A stretch of DNA of 64,000 nucleotides, from positions 55,673,416 to 55,737,415 of the forward strand of contig OX421966.1 of assembly GCA_949128115.1 (NCBI GenBank). The letters are read 5' to 3'. Below are positions 1,076 to 48,985 of the stretch, in pieces; the first letter of the stretch is position 1; each line of letters starts with the position of its first letter. Origin of the DNA: Anaspis maculata. Its lineage: Eukaryota > Arthropoda > Insecta > Coleoptera > Scraptiidae. The translations under genes and the position numbers were made by a program. A model generated the notes under the pieces. It did no database searches. It was not told the DNA's origin and saw nothing but the letters and a program-made list of their open reading frames with translations.

Positions 1076-1079
1076 AATT

Positions 1080-1900: not shown

Positions 1901-1904
1901 ACAG

Positions 1905-2848: not shown

Positions 2849-3013
2849 AGGTGCGTTCAGTCAGCTTATTTAGCCGCAAGTTTTAATTTTAGTCGCAAGC
2901 GCAGCGACGCCCATTGGCTCTTATGAACCAGCCTCCTCGGAACAGCCAATAAGTGATGCAGCACTTACGGCTAAAATTAAAATTGCGGCTAAATAAGCTG
3001 ACTAAACGCACCT
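2849..3013. mobile_element. Short MITE, about 165 bp
   Basis: The left terminus AGGTGCGTTCAGTCAGCTTA is repeated inverted at the right end with one mismatch (TAAGCTGACTAAACGCACCT). Inverted pairing extends about 30 bp, through TTTAGCCGCAA. Flanks are TAT and TTA, so no clean target duplication can be called. It sits directly beside the foldback at 3021. Confidence 0.7.
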
Positions 3014-3020
3014 TTAGTAT

Positions 3021-3432
3021 CGAGAAAATACGTGTAACCATGGAATGGCAATCCTGCCTAAGTAAGTCCTGCCGGAAATGCAATTAATTGAATAATTTAA
3101 AAATTGTAGATCACAACCTTCAAAATTCTTTGTCAACAAATGTCAGTCACATTGTTGATGGCACACAACAATCACCCCTTTCACGGGCCACTGTCAAAAA
3201 CTCATCTAGTTTTGCGTATGCTTAACGATAGTTGCTTAGCAGCACCATGTAAGTTCTGACAGTGGCGCGTCAAAGGGGTGATTGTTGTGTGCCATCAAAA
3301 ATGTGACTGACTTTTGTTGACAAGAATTTTGAAGGTTGTAATCTACAATTTTCAAATTATTTAATTAATTGCATTTCCGGCAGGATTTACTTAAGCAGGA
3401 TTGCCATTCCATGGTTGCACATATTTTCTCGA
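3021..3432. mobile_element. Foldback element, 180-bp arms
   Basis: Left arm 3021-3202 is the inverted copy of right arm 3252-3432, with a spacer of about 50 bp. Both arms contain CATGGAATGGCAATCCTGC, TGCAATTAATTGAA-like runs, and the conserved pieces GGCACACAACAATCACCCCTT and CCTTCAAAATTCTT. Identity is high by eye with a few substitutions. No coding capacity. Confidence 0.75.
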
Positions 3433-12904: not shown

Positions 12905-13143
12905 TTTCAGCGCATTTTCCATCTTAATGAGAATCGCTATCGCAGCCGCTTTGTCCGTCCGTCCGTTCTTTGAATTCCTCACAAACTAGACGCCCTAGCT
13001 TTCTGATGTTTTCGCTGTTACATAGCTGCCACTTCCATAGCTGGGCTAGGCTATATTGAATGTCTATATTGCGCCGCCAACATAGAGAAAACCGCCCCCG
13101 ATCAACTTGAAATAACATGATATTGCAATTTCTCCCAGACTTA
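12905..13143 (+). repeat. Satellite-related repeat R2, left part
   Basis: This part matches 26028-26265 in direct orientation: GCGCATTTTCCATCTT, the GTCC run, CTAGCTTTCT, TTTTCGCTGTTACATAGCTG, and GCGCCGCCAACATAGAGAAA. Its continuation is found at 14337-14720, after the transposon at 13144-14336. Confidence 0.75.
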
Positions 13144-13700
13144 TGGGGTGATTCTGTAACTTTATGCGTAACATTATGTTATTCTAACATATGTTGATAA
13201 CATAGCTCTGTTAGCAGAGACATAACATTATGTTAATAAACTTGAATTCTGTAACTCAAAATGTTACTTGCACAATAACATTGTTCTCATTAGACCAAAA
13301 ATGTAAAGTTTCGAAGTAATGGTGCAACAGAGCCAAGAAACATGCGCGCTGGAAGTCAATTCTTCGATTTATTTTACCTCCGATTATGATTATACATAAT
13401 ATCCTGATGTAAATCATATAGGTAGTACGATTAGTAGGTATGGCGAGTGTAGGTATTCGAAGACTCGAAGTTTGAAGTTAGTACCTACTTTATTTCGAGG
13501 TTTGTTTATAAACAACCATGTGCTCTTGTGATTTGTTTAATTAGGTACTGCGACCCGAGGAAGTGTTCGATATCTATTTTTTTTTGGAACTCGTATTGTG
13601 GCACTTATTCAACATGTCAAAAGCATACATCCTTGTGACACGTACTACTTAGTATAACGCGTGGAAATTGAAATATAAACCTTCAAATTTTTTTACCTGT

Positions 13701-13795
13701 GATACCTCGATACCTGCGATACTTTGATACTTGCGATACTTCGATACCTGCGATACGTCGATACCTACGATACCCTTGATACCTTTGATACTTTC
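13701..13795 (+). repeat. GATAC minisatellite
   Basis: GATACCT/GATACTT cores recur about ten times at 8-10 bp spacing, giving an approximate 17-18 bp higher unit (GATACCTGCGATACTTC). It is followed by palindromic TATCGATACTTTATTA-like sequence at 13815-13865. Confidence 0.75.
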
Positions 13796-13979
13796 ATCGA
13801 TCCTAGGTCAGGTATCGATACTTTATTAAATATCGATGCCCATCAGGTAAAAAGTATCGATCCGGAATTCTGGTACCACCCAGCCCTAATCATAACCTAG
13901 TAAAATTATTAGTAAATTTTGGTGTTTTCTTGTGTTTATAAGTATACTCTGTTTTGAGAAGTAATACCAATAATACGAA

Positions 13980-14258
13980 ATGGCAATTCCTCAAAAAAAA
14001 AAGAAACGGGGCATGCGAACCAGCAGTTTTCAGTATGAATCGTATTTAAATTTTATGGAAGGTAGCTACATTTTTCGGTCGGGAACAATCGACCCCACAC
14101 TGCCGTCGAACTACATTCAAGAAAAATGGGAAGAACTGACCAAAATAATTAATACGTGCTATGTTAACGCTTTACATTGGGGGGAGCCGGCACTGTTAGC
14201 TACATACCATGTTATGTTAGCAACAGCGTTGCATTGCACTTGGAGAATCGCAATTTGA
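13980..14258 (+). pseudogene. Myb/SANT-like DNA-binding domain relic
   Basis: The frame encodes 92 residues. It starts with a basic run (KKKKR at 6-10). Then come FQYESYLNFME (17-27) and EKWEELTKIIN (48-58), with Trp50 in the position of the conserved tryptophan of zeste/MADF-Myb-SANT-like domains. Such a protein is the usual partner of Harbinger transposases, which fits the surrounding element. From about residue 60 the frame runs into terminal-repeat sequence (TATHV-like), so the protein is truncated and fused to TIR-derived residues. Confidence 0.5.
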
Positions 14259-14336
14259 TAACATTATGCTAAAGCTAACATAACATGGCATCTAGCATAA
14301 TGTTAAGCCTTACATTTCGTTACCGAATCGCACCAC

Positions 14337-14720
14337 TAATGCTTTGGTGTTCTCATTTTATGAATAATACTCAGTTGCCACTTATAAACGTAAGCCCAGA
14401 AACATTCCATTTCCAATATGCCGACATGAAAAAATTGCTAAAAACCGCCCCCAATCACTTTAAAATGAAAAACATAAACCTGAAGACATAGCGATCTAAT
14501 TCTTCCGCTATATGAATAGCTGACTAAAAATGGGAGAGGATAGGCTACTTTGGGTTAGTCGCCGCCCCCCAGATTCCGCCCCCAAACGACAAAAAGTGCA
14601 ACTTTTACTATTGTTACTGATTGAGATGTTTTCTCAAACATTTAGAAACTGCCAACTCAAACTGTGCAATATTTGCTTAGCCGAACGCTGCCGCCAAAGT
14701 AAGAAATAATGAAACTTTTA
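14337..14720 (+). repeat. Satellite-related repeat R2, right part
   Basis: Direct match to 26268-26650: TTGGTGTTCTCATTTT, GCCACTTATAAACGTAAGCC, AACCGCCCCCAATCACTTT, GACATAGCGATCT and CCGCCCCCAAACGA. It corresponds to roughly one unit of the satellite that is tandemly repeated at 26380-27830. Confidence 0.7.
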
Positions 14721-18304: not shown

Positions 18305-18366
18305 TATTTAGCTCATACACGTCATAGGCTAGTTCTTGCTACAGTTATGAATGTTCTAAAAACGTT

Positions 18367-19108
18367 CAGGGTGTTCACGATAAAATTCACCCCCCTCTAG
18401 GAGAGTCCCCTTTGAGATATTTTGAAAAACTAAAAACTTTTTCGCAACGATTTTACCCAGGGATTTTGAATCGATCGTATAAAAGTTTTCAATTGGTACC
18501 GTATACAGGGTGTGACATGTAACTTTTTTATTTCAAATGCAACACCCTATATTTTATTACGTCATTTGATGAAGCCTTTCTTTCTGATAACAAAGATATA
18601 TAACATTTATGATTCATTTTGACAAGGAAACTGTCAAAAAAATAATAAAATAGGTAGTCATATAAATTGAAAATTGAAAATTACGCGACACCCTGTATTA
18701 GGAACGAATTAGACCATTTATCCATGCAAAGTTGAATTCTGCAGACAAAATGCTACGAGAATAACTTTATTTCAAGTGAACTGTAGAAGCCAAAGCCATC
18801 TTGCCGCGAAACAAAATTATTTGACTACCTATTTTACTATTTTTTCGACAACTTACTTGTCAAGATGAATCACAAGTGTCATATATATTTGTAATCAGAA
18901 AAAAAAGCGTCACCAAATAACGGAATAAAATATAGGGCGTTGCATTTGAAATAAAAAAAGTCACACCCTGTATACGGTACCAATTAGAAACTTTTAGAGG
19001 ATCGATTTAAGGTCCCTGGGAAAAATCGTGACGAAAAAGTTTTTAGTTCTTCGAAAAATCTCAAAGGGGAATCTACTGGAGGGGGTGAATTTTATCGTGA
19101 ACACCCTG
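18367..19108. mobile_element. Foldback with CAGGGTG ends, outer shell
   Basis: Left end CAGGGTGTTCACGATAAAAT and right end ATTTTATCGTGAACACCCTG are exact complements. The arms continue about 140 bp through GGGGGTGAATT, CTCAAAGGGG, AAACTAAAAACTTTTTCG and TTGGTACCGTATA. At the centre of these arms sits a second CAGGGTG foldback (18506-18970). No coding frame. Confidence 0.85.
18506..18970. mobile_element. Inner foldback with CAGGGTG ends
   Basis: Left CAGGGTGTGACATGTAACTT and right complement share about 160 bp of pairing: TTTCAAATGCAACACCCTAT, AATAAAATA and TTTTGACAAGGA-type blocks. TA flanks both ends (GTATA / TATAC), continuous with the outer palindrome. A third CACCCTGTA occurrence at about 18688 lies in its loop. 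Confidence 0.75.
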
Positions 19109-19540
19109 TACTTAGCTAAACTGTCTCATGCTAGCTCCAACTTGCTCTCGTAGACACAGCTTAACGTAGACCATGTTTGTTTAGCTGAACTTGTAGCGAA
19201 GTCTTGCTAAGGTCAGGTCAGTTTAGCTAAATTAATTTTTAGAATGTTTGAAGTTGGCTACTTTTGGTCTTCGGTTACCAAGTTTGGCTAAACTGCAGGC
19301 TGCATCTTTCGAGTCATAGGTAAGGTAACGTAGATTTAGTATTCAGCTTCAACTAATCTTAGCGGTATTTATTTAGACTGTAGCTCGTCTTGACTCAAGC
19401 TACAGATAGGCTGCGTAGTAGGTGCTGCTTTGGCGTATATTTAGTTCATTTAAGTCGGTTCGATCTTAGCCTAATAAAAACCTTATTACCCAAATCAGCT
19501 CTGTTTGGCTTGATTCTAGCGTTGATTGGAAGATTATAAG
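19109..19540. other. No gene; TAGCTNA-rich sequence
   Basis: The sequence is rich in short TTTAGCTAA/TTGGCTA motifs, and so is 20270-20600. These look like degenerate tandem or scattered short repeats. No coding or structural signal is recognised. Confidence 0.3.
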
Positions 19541-23110: not shown

Positions 23111-23663
23111 TGTTTATTTGTGCAATAAAGGATGACTAGCTGCCACTTCTGAGCGCATATACAGGAAGTGAAATATGATGTTGGTAACTACGACCCGGTG
23201 CTACTCAGTACTCACACTGGATTGCCATATTCACGTAGTAGTATGGTTTTTAATAAAATGAAATGCAGGAAGCATTCCATGTAACATTTTGCTAGCGAGA
23301 TTTTTGGTAAATATTTCGAGAACCGCTTTTAGCCCAGTCATCCTAGCATTTGAGGTCGGAATCTCTCCCATAAAGCTGGATTTTTGCATACATGTCCAAA
23401 AAACAGCTCTCTTTCTATTAGTGATAAAAAAAATTTCTGAGACCCGGAGCGCGTTTTTCGCCATTTTGAAAAACTGTCAATTTTTTCAGTTTTTCTTGAA
23501 TAACTCTGTAAATATTCAACTTATTGGCATGGAAGTTTTTGCAGTGATTAGAGCTTGAAATTCTCCATCCAATGCTGCCAAAAATAGTTTTTTAGGATCC
23601 ATGGTTTGTGAGAAATGTCAAATGAGTTAAGCGACTTTATTCACTTTCATCATTCCATTTGAC

Positions 23664-23951
23664 CAATTGAAATAGCTATTTACGATACGAGTGTTAAAAG
23701 TGACAGGTATTATTTTGTGAGCGGGGACGCTTGCGAAACGAGCATTAGCGAGTAGAGCAACCCCGCGAACAAAATAAGACACTTTTAACGCGTGTATCGT
23801 ACAGGATTTTATCTACAATGGTCTTTGAAATGTTTGGTAAATGTCAGAATTTATTGAAAATATGACAGGAATGCGCAGAATCATCATTTTTTCACGTCGC
23901 CCATGACGACGTGCTAAAAGTGACGGGTATTATTTAACGCTTGTAGATAAA
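23664..23951. mobile_element. MITE in the left arm only, about 290 bp
   Basis: In the right arm CATTTGACC (complement) runs almost directly into TATCGGGCTTTCAACAG, while here about 290 bp intervene. The insert has a hairpin, GAGTGTTAAAAGTGACAGGT/ACACTTTTAACGCGTGTATC, around GAGCGGGG...CCCCGCG. Near the right end it has a direct echo, AAAAGTGACGGGTATTATTT. Its right end TTGTAGATAAA resembles internal TTTTATCTACAATGG. Confidence 0.55.
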
Positions 23952-24432
23952 GAAACTTATCGAGCTTTCAACAGATCTGCACTCTTTTGCATTCGAGTAT
24001 ACATGAAAGAGGCTTCCAAACAATACTCATATATCGGTCGGTCTGCAGGTCTAACGGTCAGTCTGGTGGTCGGTCTGTTGAATTTTGTGCCCAGATTTAT
24101 TCCTGAGCCGTTGAACCAATCCCGACCAAATCTGGTAGATTCATAAGTGACAAGTTTTGAACGACAAAATCTAATTGTCATCCTGATCTGTTACTTGAAA
24201 ATGACACTACAAAAAAATGACAGAAGGTCTATCTCACCGAATGCAACTTGTGAAACATCATTTTAAAGCCCTTGAAAAAATGCATACGAAATAGCCAATG
24301 AAAACCTCCAATGTTGCGTTTGTCAAAAAATCACAAGCTGTCAAACTTTAAATTTAAACTTTTCATAACTCTTGAAATACGGAACGGAATTGAACCAAAT
24401 TCTGTTCCCAACAATAGTGCCTCACAGTAATT

Positions 24433-25252
24433 GACCTTTCCAATTTTAGGAGATAGAAAATACTTGGATTTTCGAGGTCACCTTTGACGTTTTGACGTTT
24501 ATGACGTTTGGACGTTTCGTTTCTGACTTTTGCGGGAATTTTGAACCGGATAGCTATACTGTTCCCATTATCATGTGGGGAAAGTCACTAGAGCCCATAA
24601 GGGAGTTTTTAATGGACGAAGTTATAGAGTTTTTTCGTAGTAAGATGCAAGTGTCTGGTGCAGCGTGATCCCTGCTGGTGCTGGTGCTGGTGCAGCCACA
24701 CTTCCATCAAGTTTGGGTCTTTCGTGAACCGGTGCATGGTTATGCTGGGTGTATTCGTCTTATTCTCGACTCGCATAGAGCGACACAACACCCTTGAACC
24801 ATTTCTGTAAGTATCTTCTCAGTTTTCCACTACAAATAACACAATTATTGGCAAGAACGAGGGTAAGAACAAGTGAAATAATGAAATCCATGCTGAAATC
24901 AAATAAATACACGACAGAGCGCTTGTCAGATTCGAAAAATTTCCCATTGTCAGAAACGAAATGTCATATCTCAAGAAACATAGGGCGCTTTCCAATAACT
25001 GCGACAAGACGGATACACAATGTCAAAGTGCACTTGCCAGCTCAATTCTAAACTCAGCCTCGCCAATGTTTCGATTGTGTCGACATGTGGTGCTATTACT
25101 GCTATTGGAACGCTAGCTGTGTCAAATTGTGTCCAAATGTGTCGAATTGTGTCCTTATACGCCTTATTGGGAAGCGCCCAATGACCTCGATTAACCATAT
25201 CTTATACGCATGACGTCACAGTAAAGAGAGACAACAGAAAATTGGAGACCTC
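24433..25252 (-). mobile_element. Non-autonomous transposon with THAP relic, copy 2
   Basis: Inverted copy of 263-1075, 820 bp. The ends GACCTTTCCAATTTT and AAAATTGGAGACCTC are flanked by AATT at 24429-24432 and 25253-25256. The opposite foldback arm (32188-32220) has the uninterrupted sequence with a single AATT, so insertion happened after the arms were duplicated and duplicated AATT. Confidence 0.8.
24609..24802 (-). pseudogene. THAP fragment, frameshifted
   Basis: Same fragment as 711-899, read on the minus strand from ATG at 24802. A single base is missing near 24768 (GAGTCGAG instead of GAGTGCGAG). This shifts the frame after the cysteine pair, so the intact part of the frame starts downstream at 24791. 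The His/Gln-coding CTGGTG run is one to two units longer than in copy 1. Confidence 0.65.
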
Positions 25253-25574
25253 AATTTGATGGATCATGAAATGTACCGGCAGCAGACAGGGATGCAACCT
25301 GAGAAAGAAAATTTGCCTAGTCATCCGAGCCTGTAGTGTACCTACCTGAAATAGTCAAAAAATCATCTCTTGCTCGAAGGAAGTAGTTTCCAAACGGTTT
25401 TCTTGCTATATGGTTAGCTCTTCCCCACCTCTTCAACATGGTAAAAGCAGACATCCCTGTGACGTGTACTACTTAGTATACAGGGTGAAGATTGAAAAAT
25501 GAATATTTAAAAATGTTTATTCCGTTGAAATAATTCTCGAGAAAAACAGGCTTTCATTATTTAGCAACTTTATA

Positions 25575-25870
25575 GTCTCCTGTTGAACATGTGAAAAATG
25601 TACCACTCCATAGCCGCTGGTATTCTACGTACAGGGTGCAATCAATTTTTTCCAATATTTTTTATCTTTATCGAATAAATCAAGACAAAAACCATTTCCA
25701 GCTCTGTTACAAGCCATTAGTTTCTCATGCAAGATACAACAATGTCAGATTCCTCAAACTGCAAAAACACAACGTACAGGGTGAAACAGAAAATTGATTT
25801 CACATTCACCCTGTACGTAGAATACCAGCGTCTATTAGAGGGGTACATTTTTCACATGTTTGATGTTTGA
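25575..25870. repeat. Hairpin with CAGGGTG motifs in the left arm
   Basis: GAACATGTGAAAAATGTACC and TGGTATTCTACGTACAGGGT pair with ACCCTGTACGTAGAATACCA and GGTACATTTTTCACATGTTT about 170 bp later. The right foldback arm carries one counterpart of this (31790-31860), so the hairpin here was built by an additional inverted duplication. Confidence 0.6.
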
Positions 25871-26027
25871 TAGGATACCATAAAGTATAGACTATAATAC
25901 TAAGTATAAGTAAGTATATATCTACTTATACAAAAAAATATAAGACTGGAAGCTTTATCAGTAGATAAGAGAACGTACCGGGTGGGCCATAAAAAACCGT
26001 ACTGTTTTATTTTCCTCGCCGATTTTT

Positions 26028-26380
26028 AGCGCATTTTCCATCTTGATGAAAATCGCTATTGCAACCGCTTTGTCCGTCCGTCCGTCCGTCCGTTCCTCGA
26101 ACTCCTCCCAAACTAGACGACCTAGCTTTCTAATTTTTTCGCTGTTACATAGCTGCCACTCCCAAAGGAGGGCTAGGCTATATTGGATGTCTACATTGCG
26201 CCGCCAACATAGAGAAAACCGCCCCCGATAAACTTGAAATAACATAATATTGCAGTTTCTACCAGACCTGATGCTCTGGTGTTCTCATTTTTTGAATAAT
26301 ACATAGTTGCCACTTATAAACGTAAGCCAAGAAACATTCCGTCATCAATATGCGCCGCCGACATAAAAAAACTGCTAAAA
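26028..26380 (+). repeat. Repeat R2, non-tandem head
   Basis: Uninterrupted copy of 12905-13143 joined directly to 14337-14400. It gives the empty-site reference for the Harbinger-like insertion at 13144-14336. It contains four to five GTCC units at about 26068-26085. Confidence 0.7.
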
Positions 26381-27830
26381 ACCGCCCCCAATCACTTTAA
26401 AGTGGAAAACATAAACCCGAAGACATAGCGATCTGATTCTTCCAATATATAAATAGCTGACTAAAAATGGGAAAGGATAGGCTACTTTTGGTTAGTCGCC
26501 GCCCCCAGATTCCGCCCCCAAACGATAAAAAGTGCAACTTCCACAAATGTTACTGATTGAGATGTTCCCTTAAACATTTAGAAACTGCCAACTCAAATTG
26601 TGCAACATTTGCTCAGCCGAACGCTGCCGCTCTCACACGCCGCCCCCAAAGTAAGAGATAAATGAGAAAACATGAACCCGAAGACATAGCGATCTAAGTT
26701 TTTCGCTATATGGATAGCTGACTGGAAATGGTAAAGGATAGGCTACTTTTGATATGGCGCCGCCTCCAGCTTCCGCCCCCAAAAGAAAAAAAGTGCGACT
26801 TTCAACAAATTTCACTGATTTAGCTGATAATGTTACCTCGAACATTCAGAAACTCTTGATTCAAACTGTGCAAAAATTTCTTAGCCAAACTCTGCCGCTC
26901 CCACACGCCGCCCCCAAAGTGAGAGATAGATGTAAAACATGAGCCTGAAGACATATCGATCTAACTCTTTCACTATATTGATAGCTGACTAAAATTGGAA
27001 AAAGATAGGCCACTTTTAATTAGCCGCCGCCTCCAGCTGCCGCCTCCAAACAAAAAAAAATGCAACTTTCACAGTTTTCACCGATTGTCATATTTCCCTC
27101 ACATTTAAAAACTCCCAACTCAAACTGTGCAACAGTTACTTAGCCGAATGCTGCCGCCCCCACACACTGCCCTCAAAGTGAGACATGAATGAAAAACATA
27201 AACCCGAAGACATAACGATCTAATTCTTTCGCTATATGGATATCTAACTAAAATTGGGAAAGAATAGGCTACCTTTGGCATGGCGCCGCCTCCAACTTCT
27301 ACCCCCAAAAGAAAAAAAGTGCAACTTTCAATAATTTCCACCGAATTACATTTTAATGTTACCTCAAACATTCAGAAACTCCCAACTCAAACTGTGCAAG
27401 AATTTCTTTGCCAAACTCTGCCGCTCCCACACGCCGCCCCCAAAGTAAGAGATGAATGTAAAACATAACCCTGAAGACATAGCGATCAAATTGTTCCGCT
27501 ATATAGATAGCTGACAAAAAATGGGAAGAGATAGGCCACTTTTGATTAGTCGCTGCCTCCAGCTCCCGCCCCCAAACAAAAAAAATGCAACTCTCACAAT
27601 TTTCACTGATTGTCATATTTCCTTAAACATTTAGAAACTCTTGACTCAAACTGTGCAACAGTTACTTTGCCGAATGCTGCTACCCCCACACGCTGCCCTC
27701 AAAGTAAGAGATAAATGGAAAACATAAACCCGAAGACATGGCGATCTAATTCTTTCGCTATATGGATAGCCGACCAAAAATGGGAAAGAATAGACTACTG
27801 TTGATTAGTCGCCGCTCCCAACAAAAAAAT
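26380..27830 (+). repeat. Satellite, about 263-bp units in alternating pairs
   Basis: The marker AGACATA-CGATC occurs at 26421, 26682, 26949, 27209, 27475 and 27734. Spacings are 261, 267, 260, 266 and 259, so pairs are about 526 bp. Alternate units share private features: units ending at 26949 and 27475 have CACACGCCGCCCCCAAAGT and ATTTCTTAGCC/ATTTCTTTGCC. Those at 27209 and 27734 have CTGCCCTCAAAGT and GCAACAGTTACTT. This is a two-monomer higher-order repeat. The frames of 60-85 codons inside it are repeat products. Confidence 0.8.
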
Positions 27831-28034
27831 ATATTGATAAGTGAAAGAATTTTCATTCAAATCTATTTCATTGGCAAGTACCCCATTCTGATAACACAAT
27901 ATCACAATGAGTTTCGAATGAAGAAAGTGGGCAAGGAATGGTGTTTCTCCTTCAACCAAATTTCTTTACGTTCACAATATGCCTCTTTGAGAAAATGCGC
28001 TACTGAGACTCACGCACGTGAAGGCATACTCACT

Positions 28035-28915
28035 TGTTTGTTTCTTGACCGATTTTGACAAGCTTGGTATCATTGTGTAGCTAATTGAAGAGGCTACCAG
28101 ATCCATATACAAATGATTCCTAAGTGTCAAAATTCAAAATGGCGGAAACAACTGAAAGTAGGCCTTCTTTTGCAGTCGTTTTTTTAAATTGAAATTTCAC
28201 AAAATAATCGAACTAGAGACGTTTTCTGAAAGAATGAACTATTTTCTACATTTTGAGACCACAATCAGCTCGATTGGTTTATTCGTTGGAAAGATGTGGC
28301 AAATTCGGAAGAAGCTTATTTTCCATTGTTTTAATCCAAAATTAATAATAAAAAATATTGTTTTGCCTGCCAAATTTTTGTTTCTGGAGCGATTTTGACA
28401 GGTTTAGTATCATTATGTAACCAATTAAATAAGCTTGAAGTGTCATATACCAATATGATTGAAATGTCAGAATTCAAAATGGCCGACACAACTAAAAATG
28501 AGCCATCTTTCGCGGTCGTTTTTTTAAATTGAAATTCGACAAAATGACAGAACCAGAAGCGTTTTTTGAATAATGAACTATTTTTTACATTTTGACACCA
28601 CAACTAGCTCAATTGGTTCATTCGTTGAGGAGATGTGGCAAATTAAGAAAAAGCTTATTTGCCATTGTTTCAATCCAAAACGAATAATAAAAAATATTAT
28701 TTTGTCTGTAAAATTTTTGCTTCTGAAGCGATTATGATAGATTTGATGTTATTATGTAGCCGATTAACTAGGCTACAAGTGTCATATACGAATATGATCG
28801 AAATGTCCAAATTCCAAATAGCGGACACAACTGAAAACAATCCTTCTTTTGCAGTCTTTTTTTTCATTGAAATTTGACAGAATTAAAGGGGCTTTTTGAA
28901 AAAAACTATGTGCAA
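28035..28915 (+). repeat. Tandem 340-bp repeats, left side of the loop
   Basis: Units begin with CGATTTTGACAGG/AAG, followed by TAGTATCATTATGTA-CCAATTA and end in the TGTGGCAAATT-GAA-AAGCTTATTT block. Starts are near 28051, 28392 and 28731. They are mirrored on the other side of the loop at 29190-31370. Confidence 0.7.
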
Positions 28916-29704
28916 ATGTTCTGGAAAAGACTATCAGAATATGTTCCTACCATCAGTGAAATTAAAACCTATCTTACATGTCTATTTTGAGGTTAACAAT
29001 GGATTCAAGTAATCAACAACAACTTTGACCAACACAATTACAAAAACTAGGATAGTCCTCAAATGTTTGCATCCAGAGAGTCCGCGTCCATAGATAGGAA
29101 CCTACCAAGTGAAACTCACCCTGTAAAATAATTTTGAATTATATTTTGAAAAAACGGTGATTATATCTCAGGCAGCCACCCCTTGAATAAGTTTTACAGA
29201 CAAAATAATATTTTTTACTACTATTCGTTTTGGATTGGAACAATGGCAAACAAGCTTTTTTTTTAATTTGCCACATCTCCTCAACGAATGAACCAATTGA
29301 GTTAGTTGTGGTGTCAAAATCTAAAAAACAGTTCGTTCTTCAAAAAACGTGTCTAGTTCTGTCATTTTGTCAAATTTCAATTTAAAAAAACGACTGCGAA
29401 AGAAGGCTTATTTTCAGTTGTGTCCGCATTTTTGAATTTTGACATTTCAATCATAATCGTATATGACACTTGGAGCCTATTTAATTGGTTACATAATGAT
29501 ACTAAACCTGTCAAAATCGTTCCAAAAATAAAAATTTGACAGGCAAAACAATATTTTTTATCATTCATTTTGGATTGAAACAATAGCAAATGAGCTGGTT
29601 TTCAATTTGCCACATCTCCCCAACGAATGAACCAATTGAGCTAGTTGTGGTCTTAAAATGTAGAAAATAGTCCATTCTTTCAGAAAACGTCTTTAGTTGG
29701 GTTA

Positions 29705-30862
29705 CAGCTACTATAAAAGGGTAGCTGACTCGTCAGCCATTTTGGTGCAGATGTCAGTCCGACGTTCCGATGTCAAGCGTCTTTTTGCGTCATTTTTGCG
29801 TTTAGTAAACCTAGTTTTTCGAAGACAACGTTAGCTATGGACGTCAAGTTGCCGTAAATGCGTCGTTGTTGACGTTCCAGAGAAAAACTGACAGATATGG
29901 TAAGTGTGCACAAAGCAACTGCTCTTATCGTGATTTTTCTGGTAATTTAGTTAGTATACATGAAAAACAGAATAATTTAGGACATGTAGTTCCTCATCCG
30001 TCGTGGGAGGTACGATACCTACACGTACACCGTGGTGGTGAACTGGTGGAGAGGATATCAACGACGTCGTGAACGCCGTACCAAAGAGCCCCTACAACCA
30101 AGATGAGTTATTCACCTGGATCGACTCGCACAATACTGGGGGAATAATGAAGTGCCTGATGCCTTTGCCTGATGCCTGCATGCTCGCGAGCTCGCGATGA
30201 AGAACAAATAGTGCAATACTTACCTCATACGACAATTCATGTGACTAGTAAATTAGCAGTACCTATATGCAGCAATAAAACAGTGAAACAATATGTGTTT
30301 GGATGTTCCTCCCAATTCTTAAAGTAGGTAGGTACCTAGGTACCCAAAGCTAATTCCTCTTCCTCAAATTTGAATCCTCTTCAGCCAGTGTGGTGTACCA
30401 AGGGAAGGGCGGGGAGTGCGGTTCGCTCCGGGTACCAGCAGTAAGAGGGGGTGTCAGTGTTGTTGGATTATTCGAGGTATCGGGGTGCAAAAAGGATATA
30501 CAGATCAGGGGCGCAAACTGGAAAAGCTCAGTTTTCTGGGGCGTGATTTTTTATCCCAGAATTCCCGGGGCGCAAAACTACCGAATCCGACACGGGTTTG
30601 GGGGGGTTTCACTACAGTCTGCAGTTCATTCTCTAGGTAGGTGGAATTAGGTGAGGGGTCACGCCGCTGTCGGCATTCATTCATGGACAAGGCGAAGCTC
30701 ATCATAGTTGAAAACTGTTACCTCGTACGACGAGGTTGACGATTCATTTTCAAATTTCCCGCTATTAATTATCCACGCATCACAACGCGTGACAGAGTGC
30801 GCAAATGTGACATCTGCACCAAAATGGCTGACGAGTCAGCTGTCCTATATAGAGTAGCTATA
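29705..30862. mobile_element. hAT-like element with 8-10 bp duplication
   Basis: AGTTGGGTTA occurs directly outside both ends (29695-29704 and 30863-30872). The related uninterrupted 340-bp unit at about 31200 has it once. The ends CAGCTACTATAAAAGG and the complement of CTATATAGAGTAGCTATAA are similar. The next 35 bp (AGCTGACTCGTCAGCCATTT, ...ATTTTGGTGCAGATGTCA) are near-perfect inverted repeats. A duplication of at least 8 bp fits hAT. No transposase frame. A second, GC-rich element-like block (30386-30669) lies inside. Confidence 0.75.
30386..30669. mobile_element. GC-rich hAT-like block, copy 1
   Basis: Starts CAGTGTGGTGTACCAAGGG and ends GGGGTCACGCCGCTG, whose complement CAGCGGCGTGACCCC is a hAT-style start. 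A second copy at 42918-43328 shares GGGTACCA-CAGTAA, GGGGCGCAAA, GTGTCAGTGT, TTGGATTATTC/TCGGATTATTC, CTACAGTCTGCAG and CATTCT-TAGGTAGGT. The host elements of the two copies are otherwise unrelated. No duplication is visible. Confidence 0.5.
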
Positions 30863-32996
30863 AGTTGGGTTATTCTGTCAAATTTTAATTTAAAAAAAGA
30901 CTGCAAAAGAAGGCCTATTTTCAGTTGTGTCCGCATTTTTGAATTTTGACATTTCAATCATAATCGTATATGACACTTGGAGCCTATTTAATTGGTTACA
31001 TAATGATACTAAACCTGTCAAAATCGTTCCAAAAATAAAAATTTGACAGGCAAAACAATATTTTTCATCATTCATTTTGGATTGAAACAATAGCAAATAA
31101 GCTTGTTTTCAATTTGCCACATCTCCCCAACGAATGAACCAATTGAGCTAGTTGTGGTCTTAAAATGTAGAAAATAGTCCATTCTTTCAGAAAACGTCTT
31201 TAGTTGGGTTATTCTGTCAAATTTTAATTTAAAAAAACGACTGCAAAAGAAGGCCTATTTTCAGTTGTTTCCGCCATTTTGAATTTTGACACTTGAGAAT
31301 CATTCGTATATGGTTCTGGTAGCCTCTTCAATTAGCTACACAATGATATCAAGCTTGTCAAAATCGGTCAAGAAACAAAAAATCGGCGAGAAAAATAAAA
31401 CAGTACGGTTTTTTATGGCCCACCCGGTATAAGAAGTACGGCTGAGATCATCGACTTCACAATCTGGCTCATTTCTGGCGTAGAAACGGCTTCCAGATAG
31501 AGAAAGGCATTTTCTGCAGTTTTTTGACGGCAAATAATAACCATAAAAAGTTCATATCCAAGGTGACATGCAGAAGCAAAAATAAATCATTCAGAACAAC
31601 CGCCCTGATAGCAAGCGACTTCAACTATTGATGGTGGTTTGATATTTATTATTGATTAACCCTGTATGTTGTGTTTTTGCAGTTTGAGGAATCTGACATT
31701 TTTGTATCTTGAATAAGAGATTATAGGCTTGTAACAGGGCTGGAAATGGTTTTTGTCTTGATTTATTCGATAACAATAGAAATATTGGAAAAAATCGATC
31801 GCACCCTGTACGTAGAATACCAGCGGCTATGGAGTGGTACATTTTTCACATGTTCAGCAGGAGACTATAAAGTTGCTTAATGATGAAAGACTGTTTTTCA
31901 CGAGGATTATTTCAACAGAAAAAACATTTTCAAATATTCATTTTTCAATGTTCACCCTGTATACTAAATACTACACGTCACAGGGATGTCTGCTTTTACC
32001 ATGTTGAAGAGGTGGGGAAAAGCTAACCATATAGCAAAAACAACCGTTTGAGAACTACTTTCTTCAAGCAAGGGATGATTTTTTGACTATTTCAAATAGG
32101 TACACTACAGGCTCGGATGACTAAGCAATTTTTTTTCCAGGTTGCATCCCTGTCTGCTGCTGGTACATTTCATGACCCATCAAATTATTGCGAGGTACTC
32201 TTGTTGAGAACAAAATTTGGTTCAATTCCGTTCCGTACTTCATGAGTTATGAAAAGTTAAAATTTAAAGTTTGACAGCTTGTGATTTTTTGACAGACGCA
32301 ACATTGAAGGTTCTCACTGACCATTTTGTATGCATTTTTTCGAGAGCTTTAAAATGATGTATCACAAGTTGCATTCGGTGAGATAGACATTCTGTCATTC
32401 TTTTGTAGTGACACTCCTGAGTGACAGATCAAAATGACATTTGGATTTTGTCGTTGAAACCTTGTCACTTACGAATCTACCAAATTTGGTCGGAATTGGT
32501 TCAACGTCTTGGGAATAAATCTGGGCACAAAATTCAACAGACCGACCACCAGACTGACCGTTAGACCTGCAGACTGACCGACATATGAATATTTTTTGGA
32601 AGCCTTTTTTATGGATACTCGAATGCAAAAGAGGGCAGATCTGTTGAAAGCCCGATAATTTTTTTCGGTCAAATGAAATGATGAAAGTGAATGAAGTCGC
32701 TTAACTCATTTGACATTTGTCAGAAACCATGGAATCTAGAAAAATGTTTTTGGCAAAATTGGTTGCAGAAGCTCAAGCTCTAATCACTGCAAAAACTTTT
32801 ATGTCAATAAGTTGAATATTTACAGAGTTATTCAAGAAAAACTGAAAACATTGACAGATTTTTCAAAATGGCGGAAAACGCTCTGGGTCTCAGAAATTTT
32901 TTTTATCACTAATAGAAAGAGGGCTGTTTTCTGGACATGTATGCAAAAATCCAGCTTTATGGGAGAGATTCCGACCTCAAGCCCTGAAATGAGCTA

Positions 32997-34467
32997 GTAG
33001 TGCGGCGGTTAGTAAGAATCACCTTGCATTTTGTGATAAAAGCATGAAATTTGGCACATACGCTCTACAGACTGTCCTTTACTAATTACGAGGCGGACCC
33101 ACGATGGAACCGCCGTGCAGCTGTCAGAATTGTCATTTGCCTACCTTCAAGGGGCAAAAACTGAAGTCGGTTATCGAGCTGATTCAAAAGTGACGTCTAT
33201 CAATGCAGTAGACCTTCACAGTATAACTTCACCAAAACAGATGTCAATATTACAGAAAGAGGGGGAATGGGAGGGGGTAGCTCTAGCCGCGGCACAAATT
33301 TTTTTATTTGTCAATTTCGGACCAAATTGACAAGTTTGGTGTCGTTTTCGACTAAATTACATCTTCTGAGTTCAAATTGAATGTTGTAATTGCAGTTTGA
33401 AGAAAATTTTCTTTTGTTTTGTTGGAAAAAAATATATTTCAGAAAAAAATCTTAGCCTTTTTTCATTTTGACTTTTATCTTAATTCCGGGCATTCAAAGT
33501 GAAAATCCTTATTTGGTTCACTTCTTCAAAGCTTCCTGTACATAAAAACCATGTACAAGACCTAATTTTCGCTCTGACAAGATCGTGAGCCTCATTTGTT
33601 CCTAATGTCGTAGAAGTATTATCCAATAATTTTATTAATTTTCATGTACGAATGGAGGTGTTCGTGCAAAGCCTTGCAGTTTGTGATAAGAACCTGAAAC
33701 TTGGCATACATGGTCTATGGACTGTCCTTTACGATACAAGAGGTGCACCCATGACGGAACCGCCGTTCAGCTGTCAGAATCGCCGCGATACCTTTGCACA
33801 CACTTCCATTCGTACATGAAAATGATTGCATATTACTTTCACGACTTTAGGAACAAATGAGGCTCACGAACTTGTCAAAGTAAAAATCAGGTCTCGTACA
33901 TGGTTTTCATGTGCAGGAAGCTTTGAAGAAGTGAACTAAACAACGATTCCCACTTCGAATGTCTTGAATTAGGATAAAAGTCAAAATGAAAAAAGCCTAA
34001 AAATTTTTCCCGAAATATGTTTTTTTGTTAACAAAACAAAATATTTTTCTTTCAAACTGCGATTACAACATTCGATTTGAATTCAGAAGATGTAATTTAG
34101 TCGGAAACGACACCAAACTTATCAATTTGGTCCGATATTAACAAATAAAAAAAAATCTGTGCCGCGGCTTGAACTATCCCCTCCCATTCCCCCGCCTTTT
34201 GTAATATTGACATCTGTTTTGGTGAAGTCATACTGTGAAGGTCTACTGCATTGATAGACGTCACTTTTGAATCAGCTGGATAACCGACTTCAGTTTTTGC
34301 GCCTGGAAGGTAGGCAAATGACAATTCTGACAGCTGCACGGCGGTTCCATCGTGGGTCCGCCTCGTAAATCGTAAAGGAGAGTCTGTAGAGCGTATATGC
34401 CAAATTTCATGCTTTTATCACAAAATGCAAGGTTTCCCTGAAAAGTGGTCGTTAACCGCCGCACTAC
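32997..34467. mobile_element. Foldback with GTAGTGCGG ends, in the right arm only
   Basis: Arms 32997-33720 and about 33765-34467 are near-perfect complements. They pair through GTAGTGCGGCGGTTA, GAAATTTGGCACATACG-like sequence, GGAACCGCCGTGCAGCTGTC and AAACTGAAGTCGGTTATC, with a short centre. The left arm of the large foldback has the joined sequence CAAATGCTAGGATGACTGGG, so this 1.47-kb unit inserted later, with a single A on each side. The ends and the following CACCTTGCATTTT block are shared with the foldback at 55946-57966. Confidence 0.8.
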
Positions 34468-34480
34468 AGGATGACTGGGC

Positions 34481-35890
34481 TATTTGGAGATCGGGTGTGT
34501 GCACCTTATTCATGGAAATCAGTAGACGTCAGTGTTTACATTTTTTCTGCTGTTTACCCCTTTAAGTATTTGGTCCTCATTGAATACGAAAATCGCTGCT
34601 AACAACTCTAAATCTTAACAGGAAGTGCAAAATTCAAGATGGCGCTCAAGGTTCCAACCGTTCAAGAAGCTTTTTGAAAAGTTTCTCAAATAAATTGTTG
34701 ACGGTTCTCATTGCATTTCAACGGGACAGTAGTTAAGCACTTCTTGTTGGTGGAAGAAGGCATAATAATAATGGTCTGTATTCTGCAGCAAATTTGCATA
34801 TTTCGCATGCGTGAGGATTGGAGGAAGACGGAGTAGCACCAGTGGCGCCATCACTCTGTAATCGAAATCACGAATGACACAAAGTCGATTGAACATTGAC
34901 AGTCAACGCTTTGACCTAGCTTATGCAGCTTCACATGAGTAAGCAAAGTGCAAGACCAAATAGAAGGAATTTCAGTTAAGCATTAGTTGATGTGAATCGA
35001 AATTGGACGGAAGCATTCCGCAAGAGAATTTATTGTGGGTCGAGTGACATGTTGTGGGTATTGTAGGTACATCCTGAAGTAATTGAAAAGGGTCGTAACA
35101 TTTCGCAATCATGATTCATGGCACATTATGACATGTTTTCTGTTTTCATATGAATTTTTAACGGCAATTGTCACCCGCTGGGTCTATAAGCGAGATGACG
35201 ATACGTGACCACACAAAGTTGCTAGATACAAAAATAACGGCGCATTATCCTCCCGAAATTACACCATAAAGCATTTTTACGAGGGCGCGAGAATTTTCCG
35301 ACACCAGTCTTGTGTTTATTCTGTCGCATAAATAAAGCAAATTCCATTCATTATCTTGCCCTCGCGATGGTCCAGAAACAACTTTTTTGAACTTTAGGGT
35401 TTGGTAACTACAGGGTATGTCTCAAAAATTTGCGTCTTCGCAGAGCAGAATTAAGAGGGGTGTTCCAGGAATGGAGGGGTGAGACTTCAACAACTCAGTA
35501 CTCCGTATCTCGTAATGAGCTTGTTACAATTATATGCATGCTATCTTTGCCTGTATCTATATAAATAAATACCCTATACCTCCTTCTCTGTCTGTTTGCG
35601 TTAACAAGCCGTTGCGAAATATAGAATAACCCTAATTATTTTTTTTAGAAAGCGTTTTCGATGAAAAATTGACTTTTAAAAAAATCTTGCTTTAAACTTG
35701 AATAATTCAAGAATTATTCTTGCCCGTTTGCTAATAAGAAATTTACTTACCTTTTTCCGGGCAAAAAAAATCGCAACAAAAACCCCACCCTTCGACCTCC
35801 ACTCATATCTTTTCCAACATTCTTATGACATTTTTTTTAACAAATCCGTAACCTGCTCTGGATCCAAAAAGCAACAATTTTGAAGATCGT
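34481..35890. other. Single-copy sequence, no gene seen
   Basis: No inverted repeats or recognisable domains. TACAGGGT-ATGTCTCAAAAAT at about 35411 resembles an isolated CAGGGTG-type end without a partner that I could find. ATAAATAAATA lies at 35563-35573. Confidence 0.3.
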
Positions 35891-37940: not shown

Positions 37941-37946
37941 TATATA

Positions 37947-38702
37947 CAGGGTGTTTCGGTGACCTTGCATAATATTTACTTCAGGAGGTGATTCCTCTCA
38001 AGAAAATAAGTCGAAAAGTGAGAGTAAAATTTTTCCCTGAAATGCTTTCTAATGCTGGCCTTACATTGAGCAGCAAATGCTGCAGCTTTCTTTGCAGCAG
38101 AGTTCTGATTGGAACTGACGCCTGTTATTGCTGTCAGTGACCAACATTTGACCAATGAGAGCTCGGCAGCAAAAAAAGCTGCAGCATTTGATGCTCAATG
38201 TAAGGTCACCATTAGCGAGTTACAGCCCCTCAAAGGTACAAAGTAAAACAAAGTTTTTAATTATTTGCTGAAAAACCGTTAAAGGTAGGAACTTCAAATT
38301 TGGTATAGAGAAGTTTCTCAACGGTGCAAATATACATGCAAAGTTCTAAACAAATCTGACCAGTGGCAGCGAAATTAGAGGGGATTGGGATTATGTTGAA
38401 AATTTTTTATGACACGTTCGTGTTTTTTTACTTTTACTTCAGAACGATGCCTCCTACAGAAAAAATGCAGGAGGAATAAAAGTTTTGGATTGAACAAATC
38501 TAGCGGAAACATCGAATATAAATCTCTTGCCTTTGACAGTTTTTGAGCAAATAATTGAAAACTTTGTTGCACTTTGTACCTTTGAGGAGCTGTAACGCCC
38601 TCGGGGAGCACTTGAGGAAAAAATTTCACTCCTACTTTCCGACTTATTTTTTTGATAGGAATCACCTCCCGAAGTATTATGCAAGGTCACTGAAACACCC
38701 TG
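37947..38702. mobile_element. TA-flanked CAGGGTG element with long inverted ends
   Basis: CAGGGTGTTTCGGTGACCTT at the left pairs with AAGGTCACTGAAACACCCTG at the right. TA lies on both sides. The arms extend about 110 bp through GGAGGTGATTCCT and AAGTCG-AAAGT-GGAGT-type blocks, then CCCTCAAAGGTACAAAGT-A on both sides of the interior. A diverged copy lies at 8135-8970. The MITE at 38051-38213 is inserted in the left arm. Confidence 0.8.
38051..38213. mobile_element. MITE, 163 bp, nested
   Basis: AATG-TGGCCTTACATTGAGC at the left pairs with GCTCAATGTAAGGTCACCATT at the right. The pairing continues through AAATGCTGCAGCTTT. The flanks are CTA/TTA and AGC, so a TA or TAA target is possible but not clear. 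It separates CTGAAATGCTTTCT from GCGAGTTACAGCCCC of the host element. Confidence 0.75.
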
Positions 38703-40050
38703 TATTGTAACATGCCAAAAATACTAAATTGTAGATTGTCAAACTGCTTGTCGTCCCATTGTAACCGACTGGGGGCGTAGCAACTCGCCTAGCTTTAATT
38801 TCCTGAAGGGATTGTTCAGGAGTACAAGAAAAACACTTTCCAACAAGTTGTGTGCACTTCCTACAACTCTAAACATTTCATCTTAAAAAAAATCCAAAAA
38901 ATGACTGAATATATCAAAAAAACGTCGTATATCGACAAGACGTATATCGAGGTCTTGTACAGAAAGTGCGACGTTGGCTAAGAGACTTTTAAATAAAAAG
39001 AGACAGTACCTAATCAGTTTCTCAGTCTATAAAATATTCTCATTAACCAGAATGAACATTGGAGAATCGTATCTATCAAACCGTTGTGTGACTGTCAAAC
39101 CACAAACCATGACAGATGGCCGGTCTGTAATCTGTCAAAAGTTACAAGTTACCAAGCTGTCAAGTTTGACAGTTAATAAGTCAAAAAGTAGGTACCTACA
39201 TAATAATAGATTCAACAAAATATGATCTGTAGCGAGAATACCTACCCCACGGGGGTTTGATGGACCATAAGTAGTTCCGGTCGGGTTCAAGACTGACATT
39301 GAATGAGAAATACCAGCGATGACACAACAGTCACAACACAGTCAATTGTTTGGTGTGCAAATGGGTGTTAATTAATTATTATTAGGTGAAACATTTGGCA
39401 TAATATACATGTGTATATTTTGAGGTTTGCTCCGGTTTTGATACGAAAAACACTTCAAGCTGCCTCCGTCGATGTTTTGGCGAACATCCAGAGGAAATAC
39501 GCACGCGGAATATCGCCCATAGAGGAGAATTCGCATTCATGCATAAGGGAACATTTCGAGCACCACTTGCCGCGATTAAATCGGTTCAAATCTGCATGTT
39601 TTAGAAGTAAACAAGTGGGATCACAGTGGTAACGGAGCGTAACAACCTCCATCGACAAATCGGATTGTCGGCAAGTTACGCCGGTCCTATAACTTAGGTA
39701 CGTCTCCTACTTGAAATTGATACGTATACCCCAAGTGCAAGAGTTTATTTTCCGAGCAGACGCTCAATTTTGGCTTCCCTTGTACCGCGTTGTAAAGTAA
39801 CTGTTCCACATTTTACCGTACGTTCATGCCGGCCACGGTCCCCAGAATTTTGTGGCCCGGTTTAAAAGTTTGTGTGTTCCTCTTAAGCCCTGTTCGCATA
39901 TAAAACTACCCCCAAGTGCTTATTCTCATAGATTCCCTCTACCCTCATTTTGGAGGATAATACTCCTTCCTCTTTCCACACCAAAGTGGCTTTAAAAGCA
40001 CCCGTTAAACGCGCTTTTCAACGCGCATTAACGCGCGACCGTAAGTCACG
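38703..40050. other. Single-copy sequence, no gene seen
   Basis: Short frames (83 codons at 38974-39225, 73 codons at 39411-39632) match nothing known to me. A GCGCG-rich run of CGCGCTTTTCAACGCGCATT lies at about 40010-40035. Confidence 0.3.
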
Positions 40051-41569: not shown

Positions 41570-41902
41570 CTGGCGGGCTCATAAATGGGAACACTTGAGA
41601 GTTCAAAATCGGCCAGAATATGGAAAATATAAGAATGACAAGTAGTAATGTCAAAGAATGAAAATGAGGAATCCTACACACCAGACCGACCGAGCACCAC
41701 CATCAAAACCGAACAGACACGTGTTTCGACCTATTTGGGTCTCATCAGTGTTGGGGCTTACGAGGCGATGGCTCGATGGTCTGGCGTCTCGGAATCCAAT
41801 ATATCAACTCTCCGCAGAGTACTCACGAGTGAGACCCCCGTGCAGCGCCATCTATGATCGGTATAATGTCAAATGTTTCCATTCCATTTATGAGCCCGCC
41901 AG
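41570..41902. mobile_element. TA-flanked mariner-like MITE, 333 bp
   Basis: CTGGCGGGCTCATAAATGG at the left is mirrored by CCATTTATGAGCCCGCCAG at the right. TA lies immediately outside both ends (41568-41569, 41903-41904). The interior has CACGTGTTTCGACCTATTTG followed by GGGTCTCATCAGTG, a motif I associate with arthropod repeats. The 69-92-codon frames inside are not genes. Confidence 0.75.
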
Positions 41903-47190: not shown

Positions 47191-47395
47191 TGATAATAAA
47201 ATTCAAACTAGAAAACATGTTCGTAAGAAAAAACAGAACGTTTCACTTTTTATGTAAAACACCCCTGAAAACAACCCTGCTCTTCCAATATCATTGGAAT
47301 AATGTTTAGTTGAAAATCTTAACATGATTTCGTAGCAGTCCAGTGAAAATCAGCGTTCTCCAGAAATTTTGAATTTTTGTCTCTTCATACATATA

Positions 47396-48141
47396 CAGGG
47401 TGTCCCGAAAATACACCGACAACGTTCTAGGACAGCTTCCTCTCATCAAAATAAGAAGAAAATTTCCCATGAACATGGGTCCGGAAATGCTTCATAAGGG
47501 AGCTACAGCCCCCTGAAGGTGGGACCCTGAAGATGGTTGTTTATTTAATATTACCGAAACCGTTCAAGGAAAATTAATCAAACTTGACACATTTAATAAC
47601 CTTCTTATGCCTAACAAAATTTGAATGCCTAACAAAAATGAAATTGCTTTGAAATAGTTTTTCTCTCGCCTTGAATATCGTAATTAAAAATCAGCATTTC
47701 TGACCACGTTTTCTCACATTCAAACTCAAATATCTCGTAAACGGTGCATCTATCGAGGTTGAACAGAGGAACCTTCCTTTGGTAGAAAGCTCCAATATTC
47801 CAGAATATCTTGTTGAATTGAAAAACAATTCACATTCAAAAAAGTTAGGGTTATTTTTACCTCCCCACCTCCGCCTAACCCACCCCTGGTAAATTATTTT
47901 GGAATTAATATTGCCTCATTTTGCTGGGCCTAAGAAGGTTAGTGGATGTGTCAAAATTGATTGATTTTCCTTGAACGGCTTCGGAAATACTGAATAAAAA
48001 CCATCTTCGGGGTCCCACGTTTAGGGGCCTGTAGCTCCCTTAGAAAGCGTTTCCAGACCCATATTCATACGAACTTTTTTTCTTGTTTTGTTGAGAGGAA
48101 GCTGCCTTAGAACGTTGTCGGTATATTTTCGGGACACCCTG
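47396..48141. mobile_element. TA-flanked CAGGGTG foldback, 220-bp arms
   Basis: CAGGGTGTCCCGAAAATACA and TGTATTTTCGGGACACCCTG-like ends are flanked by TA. Pairing runs through GACAACGTTCTAGGACAGCT, CTCTCATCAAAA, GAAATGCTT, AGGGAGCTACAG, GGGACCC and CCTTGAACGG-type blocks to about 47610 and 47935. The loop contains no recognisable coding region. Confidence 0.85.
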
Positions 48142-48144
48142 TAT

Positions 48145-48985
48145 TTGAAGAAAAAATTGTTAATCACGGGGACGCACGTGGACGCATGCAATTTCTTTTG
48201 AAATCAACTTGAAAAAGGTGTAGCTTTTAGTGAAAGAAGTTGTAGGCTGGAGCAAGGTGGAACATTTTTTGTAAGCCACTGCAAAAATGGAACTCTTGGA
48301 AAACAAATGACCCGAACATCGCCATTCGAAATAATGTATAATTCTGAAACAAGTGGACATATATCATGTGTGAAGTATGATTAACTTTCAAAAAACTTCA
48401 AGTGAGCTATGGTAAAATTTATAGAATGATATCTGGCCTCTGAAAAGCACAGTCGGCAATACCACTTCAGTCACAAAATGCCATGAAAGTGTTATCAGTA
48501 GAGTTATTTTAAAGTCCTGTGTTTGAGGCATCACACAAAAGTTATGGATTGCTTTGGAATCTCAAGACTTTGGTAACTTATGAATCAACAATTTTTCTAA
48601 ATAATAGCAAAAATTTGGTCCGAAATATCAAAATGACCTTGCTCGACTTTTGGCCACTTTTTACGGCATTTGGCCCACTGTGCACTGCCGTAAAGTCATT
48701 TGACTTGATCCATTTTGATAGCTCGAAGTGTCTTTCACGCTTTAGGGCTCTTGACACTATGCAGCCACAAACCCAATATACAAGCTCATTTTTTTCGGGA
48801 AATGTAAAAAAAAAAATTGAGAAAACCTAACATAATGTTTGACTATAGCATCAATTAATTGTATTTTCTGAAAATAATGACGTTTGAATTTTCAAAATCG
48901 ATCAGTTGGGTGCATTTTAAGAACGTTAATAGTTTCCGCGCCATCTCGCGTCTCAGAAACACACTATTTTATCGTCCCCTTTCAC
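48145..48985. other. Single-copy sequence, no gene seen
   Basis: The 103-codon frame at 48519-48830 shows no known motif. A few blocks (TCATTTGACTTGATCCATTT, GACACTATGCAG) were not found elsewhere in the window. Confidence 0.3.

What the first reader, a model, noticed from the sequence alone, without database searches (positions are those of the whole stretch)
23332..34480. 11-kb nested foldback whose arms act as before/after records
The termini GCCCAGTCATCC/GGATGACTGGGC are flanked by TA, and arms of several kilobases remain alignable. Each arm carries insertions the other lacks, so the element dates and bounds at least three later insertions internally. An 11-kb TA-flanked foldback with a satellite in its loop is not a class I can match to a named family.
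Basis: partly seen in the sequence, partly recalled or inferred. Interest (0 to 1): 0.75.

Follow-up and report, generated by a model that had tools for sequence, protein, structure and literature searches.

The report
Old jumping gene packed with others
The 11-kb inverted structure is one copy of a common, non-coding fold-back jumping gene whose normal size is about 3 to 4 kb, swollen by at least six other jumping genes that later landed inside it; it is a tidy fossil record, but not a new class of giant element.

Summary
The inverted arms are real, and so are insertions carried by one arm only. The reading of the ends is wrong. The element is 23330-34482, with ends 5'-TAGCCCAGTCATCC...GGATGACTGGGCTA-3'. 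The flanking "TA" belongs to the element; the target-site duplication is 3 bp (TTT here): 21 of 21 copies examined, against 8 of 420 shuffled pairings. The 12-base end motif occurs 315 times in the 758-Mb host genome, control 8. The family is a non-coding fold-back transposon with 1.2-1.5-kb arms; 17 of 20 other copies read are 2.6-4.3 kb long. The window copy is 11.15 kb because other elements landed in it: C (5.45 kb, TA duplication) in the loop, holding a helentron-like element with the satellite (G) and a 10-bp-duplication element (D); E (820 bp) and F (~284 bp) in the left arm; B (1.47 kb) near the right end. Without C, E, F and B about 3121 bp remain, the length of un-nested sibling L018. 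Alpha and beta arms form two separate sets in the tree (100/100), so the ~9% arm difference predates the family's spread and does not date this copy. Two identical 3977-bp copies suggest recent mobility. No transposase was found; the superfamily is open.

The parts
23330..34482 (+). Element A: whole fold-back transposon with its later insertions, 11153 bp; termini 5'-TAGCCCAGTCATCC / GGATGACTGGGCTA-3'; 3-bp target-site duplication TTT on both sides
   Evidence: 21 of 21 copies have a 3-bp duplication
23330..25975 (+). A left (alpha-type) arm and left part of loop, interrupted by F and E
   Evidence: aligned to L018 element positions 1-342, 339-825 and 822-1536, 94-98% identity
31428..32997 (-). 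A right (beta-type) arm and right part of loop
   Evidence: aligned to L018 element positions 1534-3108, 95.8%; the outermost 13 bp plus the 3-bp duplication lie beyond B, at 34467-34482
23665..23948 (.). Element F, insertion of about 284 bp in the left arm only; flanked by GAAA on both sides, exact ends uncertain
   Evidence: gap in right arm; absent in L016, L017, L018 at the aligned site; not found in any of 20 siblings
24433..25252 (.). Element E, 820-bp insertion in the left arm only, AATT duplication; sibling copy at 259-1079 (96.4%)
   Evidence: empty site in the right arm and in L009, L016, L017, L018, L025
25978..31427 (.). Element C, 5450 bp, terminal repeat CCGGGTGGGCCATAAAAAACCGTAC.., TA duplication; landed in the loop of A; arms carry ~339-bp tandem units
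   Evidence: empty site GAACG-TA-TAAGAAG in L018; inverted ends 98% over 52 bp; tandem unit; coordinates
26028..28033 (+). Element G inside the left arm of C: helentron-like (HINE/DINE-1-like) with a GTCC run, a 259-bp minisatellite of 5.4 units (26398-27815) and an inverted copy of its 5' end at 27991-28002; 3' end approximate
   Evidence: related, interrupted copy at 12909-14694 and a piece in L058:212-484
29705..30862 (.). Element D inside the right arm of C, 1158 bp, ~55-bp inverted ends, 10-bp duplication AGTTGGGTTA
32998..34466 (.). Element B, 1469-bp fold-back, terminal repeat TAGTGCGGCGGTTA, 3-bp duplication TAG (right copy reads CAG); landed 13 bp inside the right end of A
   Evidence: copies in L029, L041, L045, L055 all with exact 3-bp duplications; 858 genome hits of the 13-base core, control 13
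25315..25326 (+). Internal near-copy of the end motif (GCCTAGTCATCC), mirrored at 32115-32126 (-)

Best explanation
Element A is a non-autonomous, cut-and-paste-type fold-back DNA transposon. Shown: two 1.2-1.5-kb inverted arms, ends 5'-TAGCCCAGTCATCC, a 3-bp target-site duplication, no long reading frame, and many genomic copies. Supported by the arm tree: the palindrome existed and its arms had drifted apart before the family spread, and both arms then travelled together. Inferred: a transposase made elsewhere recognises the ~14-bp ends, cuts the unit out and pastes it in at 3-bp staggered breaks. The window copy landed in a TTT site; later C landed in its loop, E and F in the left arm and B near the right end, while G and D landed in C. 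Inferred: this copy is probably immobile now, because B separates the last 13 bp from the rest of the right arm.
For: 315 end motifs against 8 in the control. 37 facing pairs under 10 kb among the 100 places listed (recounted); 20 of these 37 were fetched. 3-bp duplication, never longer, in 21 of 21; cross-copy control 8 of 420. Arm tree: 21 alpha and 21 beta arms each on one side of a branch, 100/100, with the same sister copies in both halves, e.g. L017+L024, L012+L020, L019+L022 and L016/L018/window. L018 is an un-nested sibling; window length 11153 less C+TA, E+AATT, B+3 bp and F (about 284 bp) is about 3121 bp, the length of L018. L009 and L010 are identical over 3977 bp at two places with different duplications, GTA and TTG, and no flank similarity in 298 bp on each side. 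Longest stop-to-stop frame in the 21 elements 172 aa (L023), otherwise at most 135.
Against: No autonomous partner or transposase was found, so the moving enzyme is inferred; the family search meant to look for one did not complete. Copies were chosen by exact 12-base ends, so end conservation is partly by selection; the duplications were not selected. Seven of 20 unpaired motif hits show no family sequence next to the motif. The identity ranges overlap: alpha-alpha between copies 0.876-1.0, alpha-beta between copies 0.804-0.940, so the two-set result rests on the tree, which is unrooted, and L012/L020 have an unusually divergent alpha arm. Identity of L009 and L010 could also come from gene conversion, though different duplications and flanks make transposition simpler.
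Confidence: 0.92

Rival explanations
1. A is a single giant (11-kb) TA-inserting fold-back element (Tc1/mariner-like) that carries its own satellite in the loop.
For: TA stands beside the 12-base motif in all 20 fetched copies, and C inside it does have a TA duplication.
Against: The 3 bases outside TA are duplicated in 21 of 21 copies. L018 lacks the whole 5.45-kb loop insert at a clean TA empty site. Tested pieces of C (end, right unit, loop) and the satellite were found in none of 20 siblings, and the satellite occurs elsewhere without A, at 12909-14694 and in L058.
Confidence: 0.02
2. The palindrome is an assembly artefact or a recent local inverted duplication.
For: No reads were available to check the locus.
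Against: Arms are only ~91% identical, carry different inserts, and the same two arm types are found at 20 other loci with their own duplications.
Confidence: 0.01
3. A is mobilised by a Zator-type (ISAzo13-related) transposase.
For: 3-bp duplications without an evident sequence motif; Zator and ISAzo13 make 3-bp duplications (PMC10045372, passages).
Against: No transposase with these ends was found; the PF07592 search did not complete. Terminal sequences of Zator were not compared. That PF07592 is the matching family is recalled.
Confidence: 0.25
4. A is mobilised by a PIF/Harbinger-group (PHIS) or EnSpm/CACTA-group transposase.
For: Canonical Harbinger elements and some EnSpm elements also make 3-bp duplications (PMC12730594, passages).
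Against: CMCT (EnSpm-group) ends are in most cases 5'-CA..TG, here 5'-TA..TA. The Harbinger target TWA (recalled) fits 3 of 21 duplications (TTA twice, TAA once).
Confidence: 0.25

Closest known systems
Tc4 of Caenorhabditis elegans and its arthropod relatives (TcMar-Tc4)
   Same: Fold-back DNA transposon with a 3-bp duplication (PMC11071193 passages; fold-back structure from the title of the reference cited there)
   Different: Tc4 duplicates TNA inside CTNAG; only 3 of 21 duplications here fit TNA. The arms here are longer than my recollection of Tc4 arms. No Tc4 transposase was sought.
Tetris of Drosophila virilis
   Same: Non-autonomous fold-back, TIRs up to 1735 bp, no conserved ORFs, no autonomous copy found, linked to tandem repeats (PMC4079207 passages)
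   Different: 8-10-bp duplications (its authors suggest Mutator); its tandem repeats lie in its own arms, whereas the satellite here belongs to an unrelated insertion
HINE / DINE-1 (non-autonomous helentrons), for the satellite-bearing part G only
   Same: 5' motif with a nested inverted repeat, inverted copy of that motif ~31 bp from the 3' end, microsatellite and central tandem repeats, insertion in a T run (PMC4067079 passages)
   Different: The 3' stem-loop was not convincing (z -0.22) and the 5' fold only weakly so (z -1.79); no autonomous helentron was sought
Drosophila Foldback (FB) and Galileo
   Same: Long, internally repetitive inverted arms (Galileo: start of abstract in the listing; FB recalled)
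   Different: Other superfamilies (Galileo: P-element) and longer duplications (recalled)

Membership tests
Fold-back (long-TIR) non-autonomous DNA transposon | Long inverted arms making up most of the element | tested here: met
   one inverted match of 1.23-1.49 kb in 17 of 20 copies; in L019, L023 and L026 the match is broken into pieces
Fold-back (long-TIR) non-autonomous DNA transposon | Target-site duplication at each copy | tested here: met
   3 bp in 21 of 21
Fold-back (long-TIR) non-autonomous DNA transposon | No transposase gene | tested here: met
   longest stop-to-stop frame 172 aa, next 135 aa, in 21 elements; no profile search was made on them, so exon-sized remnants are not excluded
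Tc1/mariner with TA duplication | Duplication is TA | tested here: not met
Tc4 | Duplication TNA in CTNAG | tested here: not met
   3 of 21 fit TNA
Zator | 3-bp duplication | tested here: met
   literature
Zator | Zator/ISAzo13-related transposase with the same ends | not tested
   The genome search with PF07592 did not complete
Mutator-type fold-back (Tetris) | 8-10-bp duplication | tested here: not met
   for A; D inside C does have a 10-bp duplication
HINE/DINE-1 (for G) | Subterminal inverted repeats, tandem repeats, T-rich insertion site | tested here: met
   pre-insertion sequence read from the other arm of C
HINE/DINE-1 (for G) | Short stem-loop near the 3' end | tested here: inconclusive

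The most novel reading that the evidence does not exclude
A and B are two otherwise different fold-back families in one genome that share 5'-TAG...CTA-3' ends and 3-bp duplications of no evident sequence. They may be moved by one undescribed kind of transposase that tolerates, or prefers, long palindromic substrates.
Probability: 0.1. Interest if true: 0.55.

Novelty: new member of a known kind. Interest (0 to 1): 0.27.

Why it matters
It corrects a plausible misreading: TA next to an inverted end is not proof of a TA duplication. It shows how a ~3-kb fold-back reaches 11 kb by passengers alone. It also gives a clean case in which the arms of a palindromic transposon keep separate identities through the spread of a family, so arm-to-arm divergence measures the age of the palindrome and not of the insertion; that bears on dating fold-back elements generally.

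Tried and rejected
Rejected: TA duplication for A and for B (4 of 4 other copies with both ends in view have exact 3-bp duplications; the window copy has 2 of 3 bases).

Rejected: the inner GCCTAGTCATCC pair (25315, 32115) as a second nested element. The arms align straight through it, so it reads as an internal motif of the arm.

Tried without result: finding an autonomous partner. Of the 100 listed motif places 26 are not in a facing pair under 10 kb; 20 of these 26 were fetched. Of the 20, 13 are similar to the family element within the first 400 bases; of the other 7, L058 has one weak 153-base piece further in and 6 have none. Long frames in some of these 7 were not identified by any search. 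The pattern with a base other than T after the 14-base end gave 6 hits, control 1; three of the six lie in fetched loci (L055, L058, L064). Places of the motif beyond the 100 listed (of 315) were not seen.

Not answered: genome searches for the C terminal repeat, for PF07592 and for TAGCCCAGTCATCCTB. The copy number of C is therefore unknown. Paper searches touching fold-back families or 3-bp duplications showed no fold-back family with these ends in the titles and abstract starts listed; Tc4 came up through passages of PMC11071193. One search was spoiled by a term that matched "academic". Repbase and Dfam cannot be searched here.

Full report
What is there. The inverted arms are real. Within the window, left-arm pieces 23350-23664, 23950-24432 and 25253-25788 match the reverse strand of 32667-32980, 32183-32665 and 31653-32186 at 89-92%. 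The best inverted match in 30 dinucleotide shuffles of the whole element reaches 37 bits, against 447-752 bits for these blocks.

Copies elsewhere. The window lies in a 758-Mb genome of 50 contigs. GCCCAGTCATCC occurs 157 times forward and 158 times reverse, against 5 and 3 for the letters read backwards. Among the 100 places listed there are 37 facing pairs less than 10 kb apart. I fetched 20 of these 37, chosen before their flanks were read. All 20 show inverted matches within themselves and similarity to the window element; with TA included they are 2576 to 8205 bp long, 17 of 20 between 2576 and 4306 bp. A search with one un-nested copy scored 40 of 1846 candidate places and gave 216 matching pieces, so the family is larger than what I read.

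The ends. All 20 copies and the window copy have TA beside the motif, which looks like a mariner-type duplication. But the three bases outside TA are the same on both sides in 21 of 21 copies (window TTT), and pairing left flanks with right flanks of other copies gives 8 of 420. So the element starts with TAG and duplicates 3 bp of no evident fixed sequence. It spans 23330-34482.

Nested insertions. L018, at C1:65626801-65629921, is 3121 bp and matches the window arms at 94-98% on the left and 95.8% on the right. It has the empty site for C: GAACG-TA-TAAGAAG there, GAACG-TA-[5450 bp]-TA-TAAGAAG in the window. It also has the empty sites for E (one AATT there, AATT on both sides here), F and B. 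The window length of 11153, less C with one TA (5452), E with AATT (824), B with three bases (1472) and F (about 284, from the gap in the right arm), is about 3121, the length of L018. D, E, F, G and the three tested pieces of C (end, right unit, loop) were found in none of the 20 siblings; stretches similar to B lie in the flanks of L011 and L019, outside the element, and a whole B lies in L055, a diverged family member. In L011, L014, L019, L023 and L026 the arms are themselves split by gaps of about 0.5 kb or more relative to L018, which suggests inserts or losses of their own.

Inside C. C has 52-bp inverted ends at 98% and arms built of ~339-bp units in inverted orientation. D (29705-30862) sits in its right arm with a 10-bp duplication, AGTTGGGTTA. 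G (26028 to about 28033) sits in its left arm just inside the terminal repeat. G holds the satellite (26398-27815, 259-bp unit), a GTCC run at 26072-26087, and an inverted copy of its own first bases at 27991-28002. A relative of G starts at the same base at 12909 and runs, with an interruption, to 14694. This is close to the anatomy of HINE/DINE-1 elements, whose subterminal repeats, tandem repeats and T-rich insertion are described (PMC4067079, passages; PMC7492417, listing only). The 3' stem-loop was not convincing.

Element B. The 13-base core AGTGCGGCGGTTA occurs 858 times against 13 in the control. Four other copies with both ends in view (L029, L041, L045, L055) have exact 3-bp duplications, and the window copy has TAG/CAG. 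So two different fold-back families here share TAG ends and 3-bp duplications.

What the arms record. I aligned 21 left-type (alpha) and 21 right-type (beta) arms to one arm of L018. Within a copy the two arms are 0.87-0.93 identical, mean 0.913; alpha against alpha between copies averages 0.934 (0.876-1.0), beta against beta 0.949 (0.927-1.0), alpha against beta between copies 0.912 (0.804-0.940). In the unrooted tree, the alpha and the beta arms lie on the two sides of one branch, 100/100, and several sets of sister copies recur in both halves. The simplest reading is that the palindrome was formed and diverged before the family spread, and the arms of a copy have not been made alike since. 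For the window copy, arm-to-arm divergence is therefore not an age; its distance to the nearest siblings L016 and L018, 3-4%, is the better guide.

Mobility. L009 and L010 are identical over 3977 bp, with duplications GTA and TTG and no flank similarity in the 298 bp fetched on each side. That suggests recent movement of the whole unit with its diverged arms. None of the 21 elements has a stop-to-stop frame above 172 aa, so a transposase presumably comes from elsewhere. I found none; the searches that would test this did not complete.

Placement. Fold-back elements are a known kind. [quoted passage not shown] Tc4 has a 3-bp duplication but of TNA (PMC11071193, passages), which fits 3 of 21 here. 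Zator and ISAzo13 elements, canonical Harbinger and some EnSpm elements make 3-bp duplications (PMC10045372 and PMC12730594, passages). Without a transposase I leave the superfamily open.

Noticed in passing
window 41710-41754 (-): Type I hammerhead ribozyme match (Rfam RF00163, 44.7 bits, gathering 34); context not examined.
   Followed up: no
window 259-1079: Second copy of element E, 96.4% identical, also flanked by AATT; inverted ends GAGGTC/GACC.
   Followed up: partly
window 33640-33822: Inside B's loop is a further small inverted pair (CATGTACGAATGG) and a stretch 81% similar to B's own arm (33022-33130 against 33672-33780), as if a relative of B lies in B.
   Followed up: no
window 18364-19111, 37944-38705, 47390-48147: Short elements with CAGGGTG inverted ends, of the kind common to mariner-like MITEs (family name recalled); similar ACAGGGTG motifs lie inside the arms of A.
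   Followed up: no
L012 and L020: Two copies share a left arm that is much more divergent (0.89 to the window) while the right arm is ordinary (0.94), as if part of one arm was replaced.
   Followed up: no
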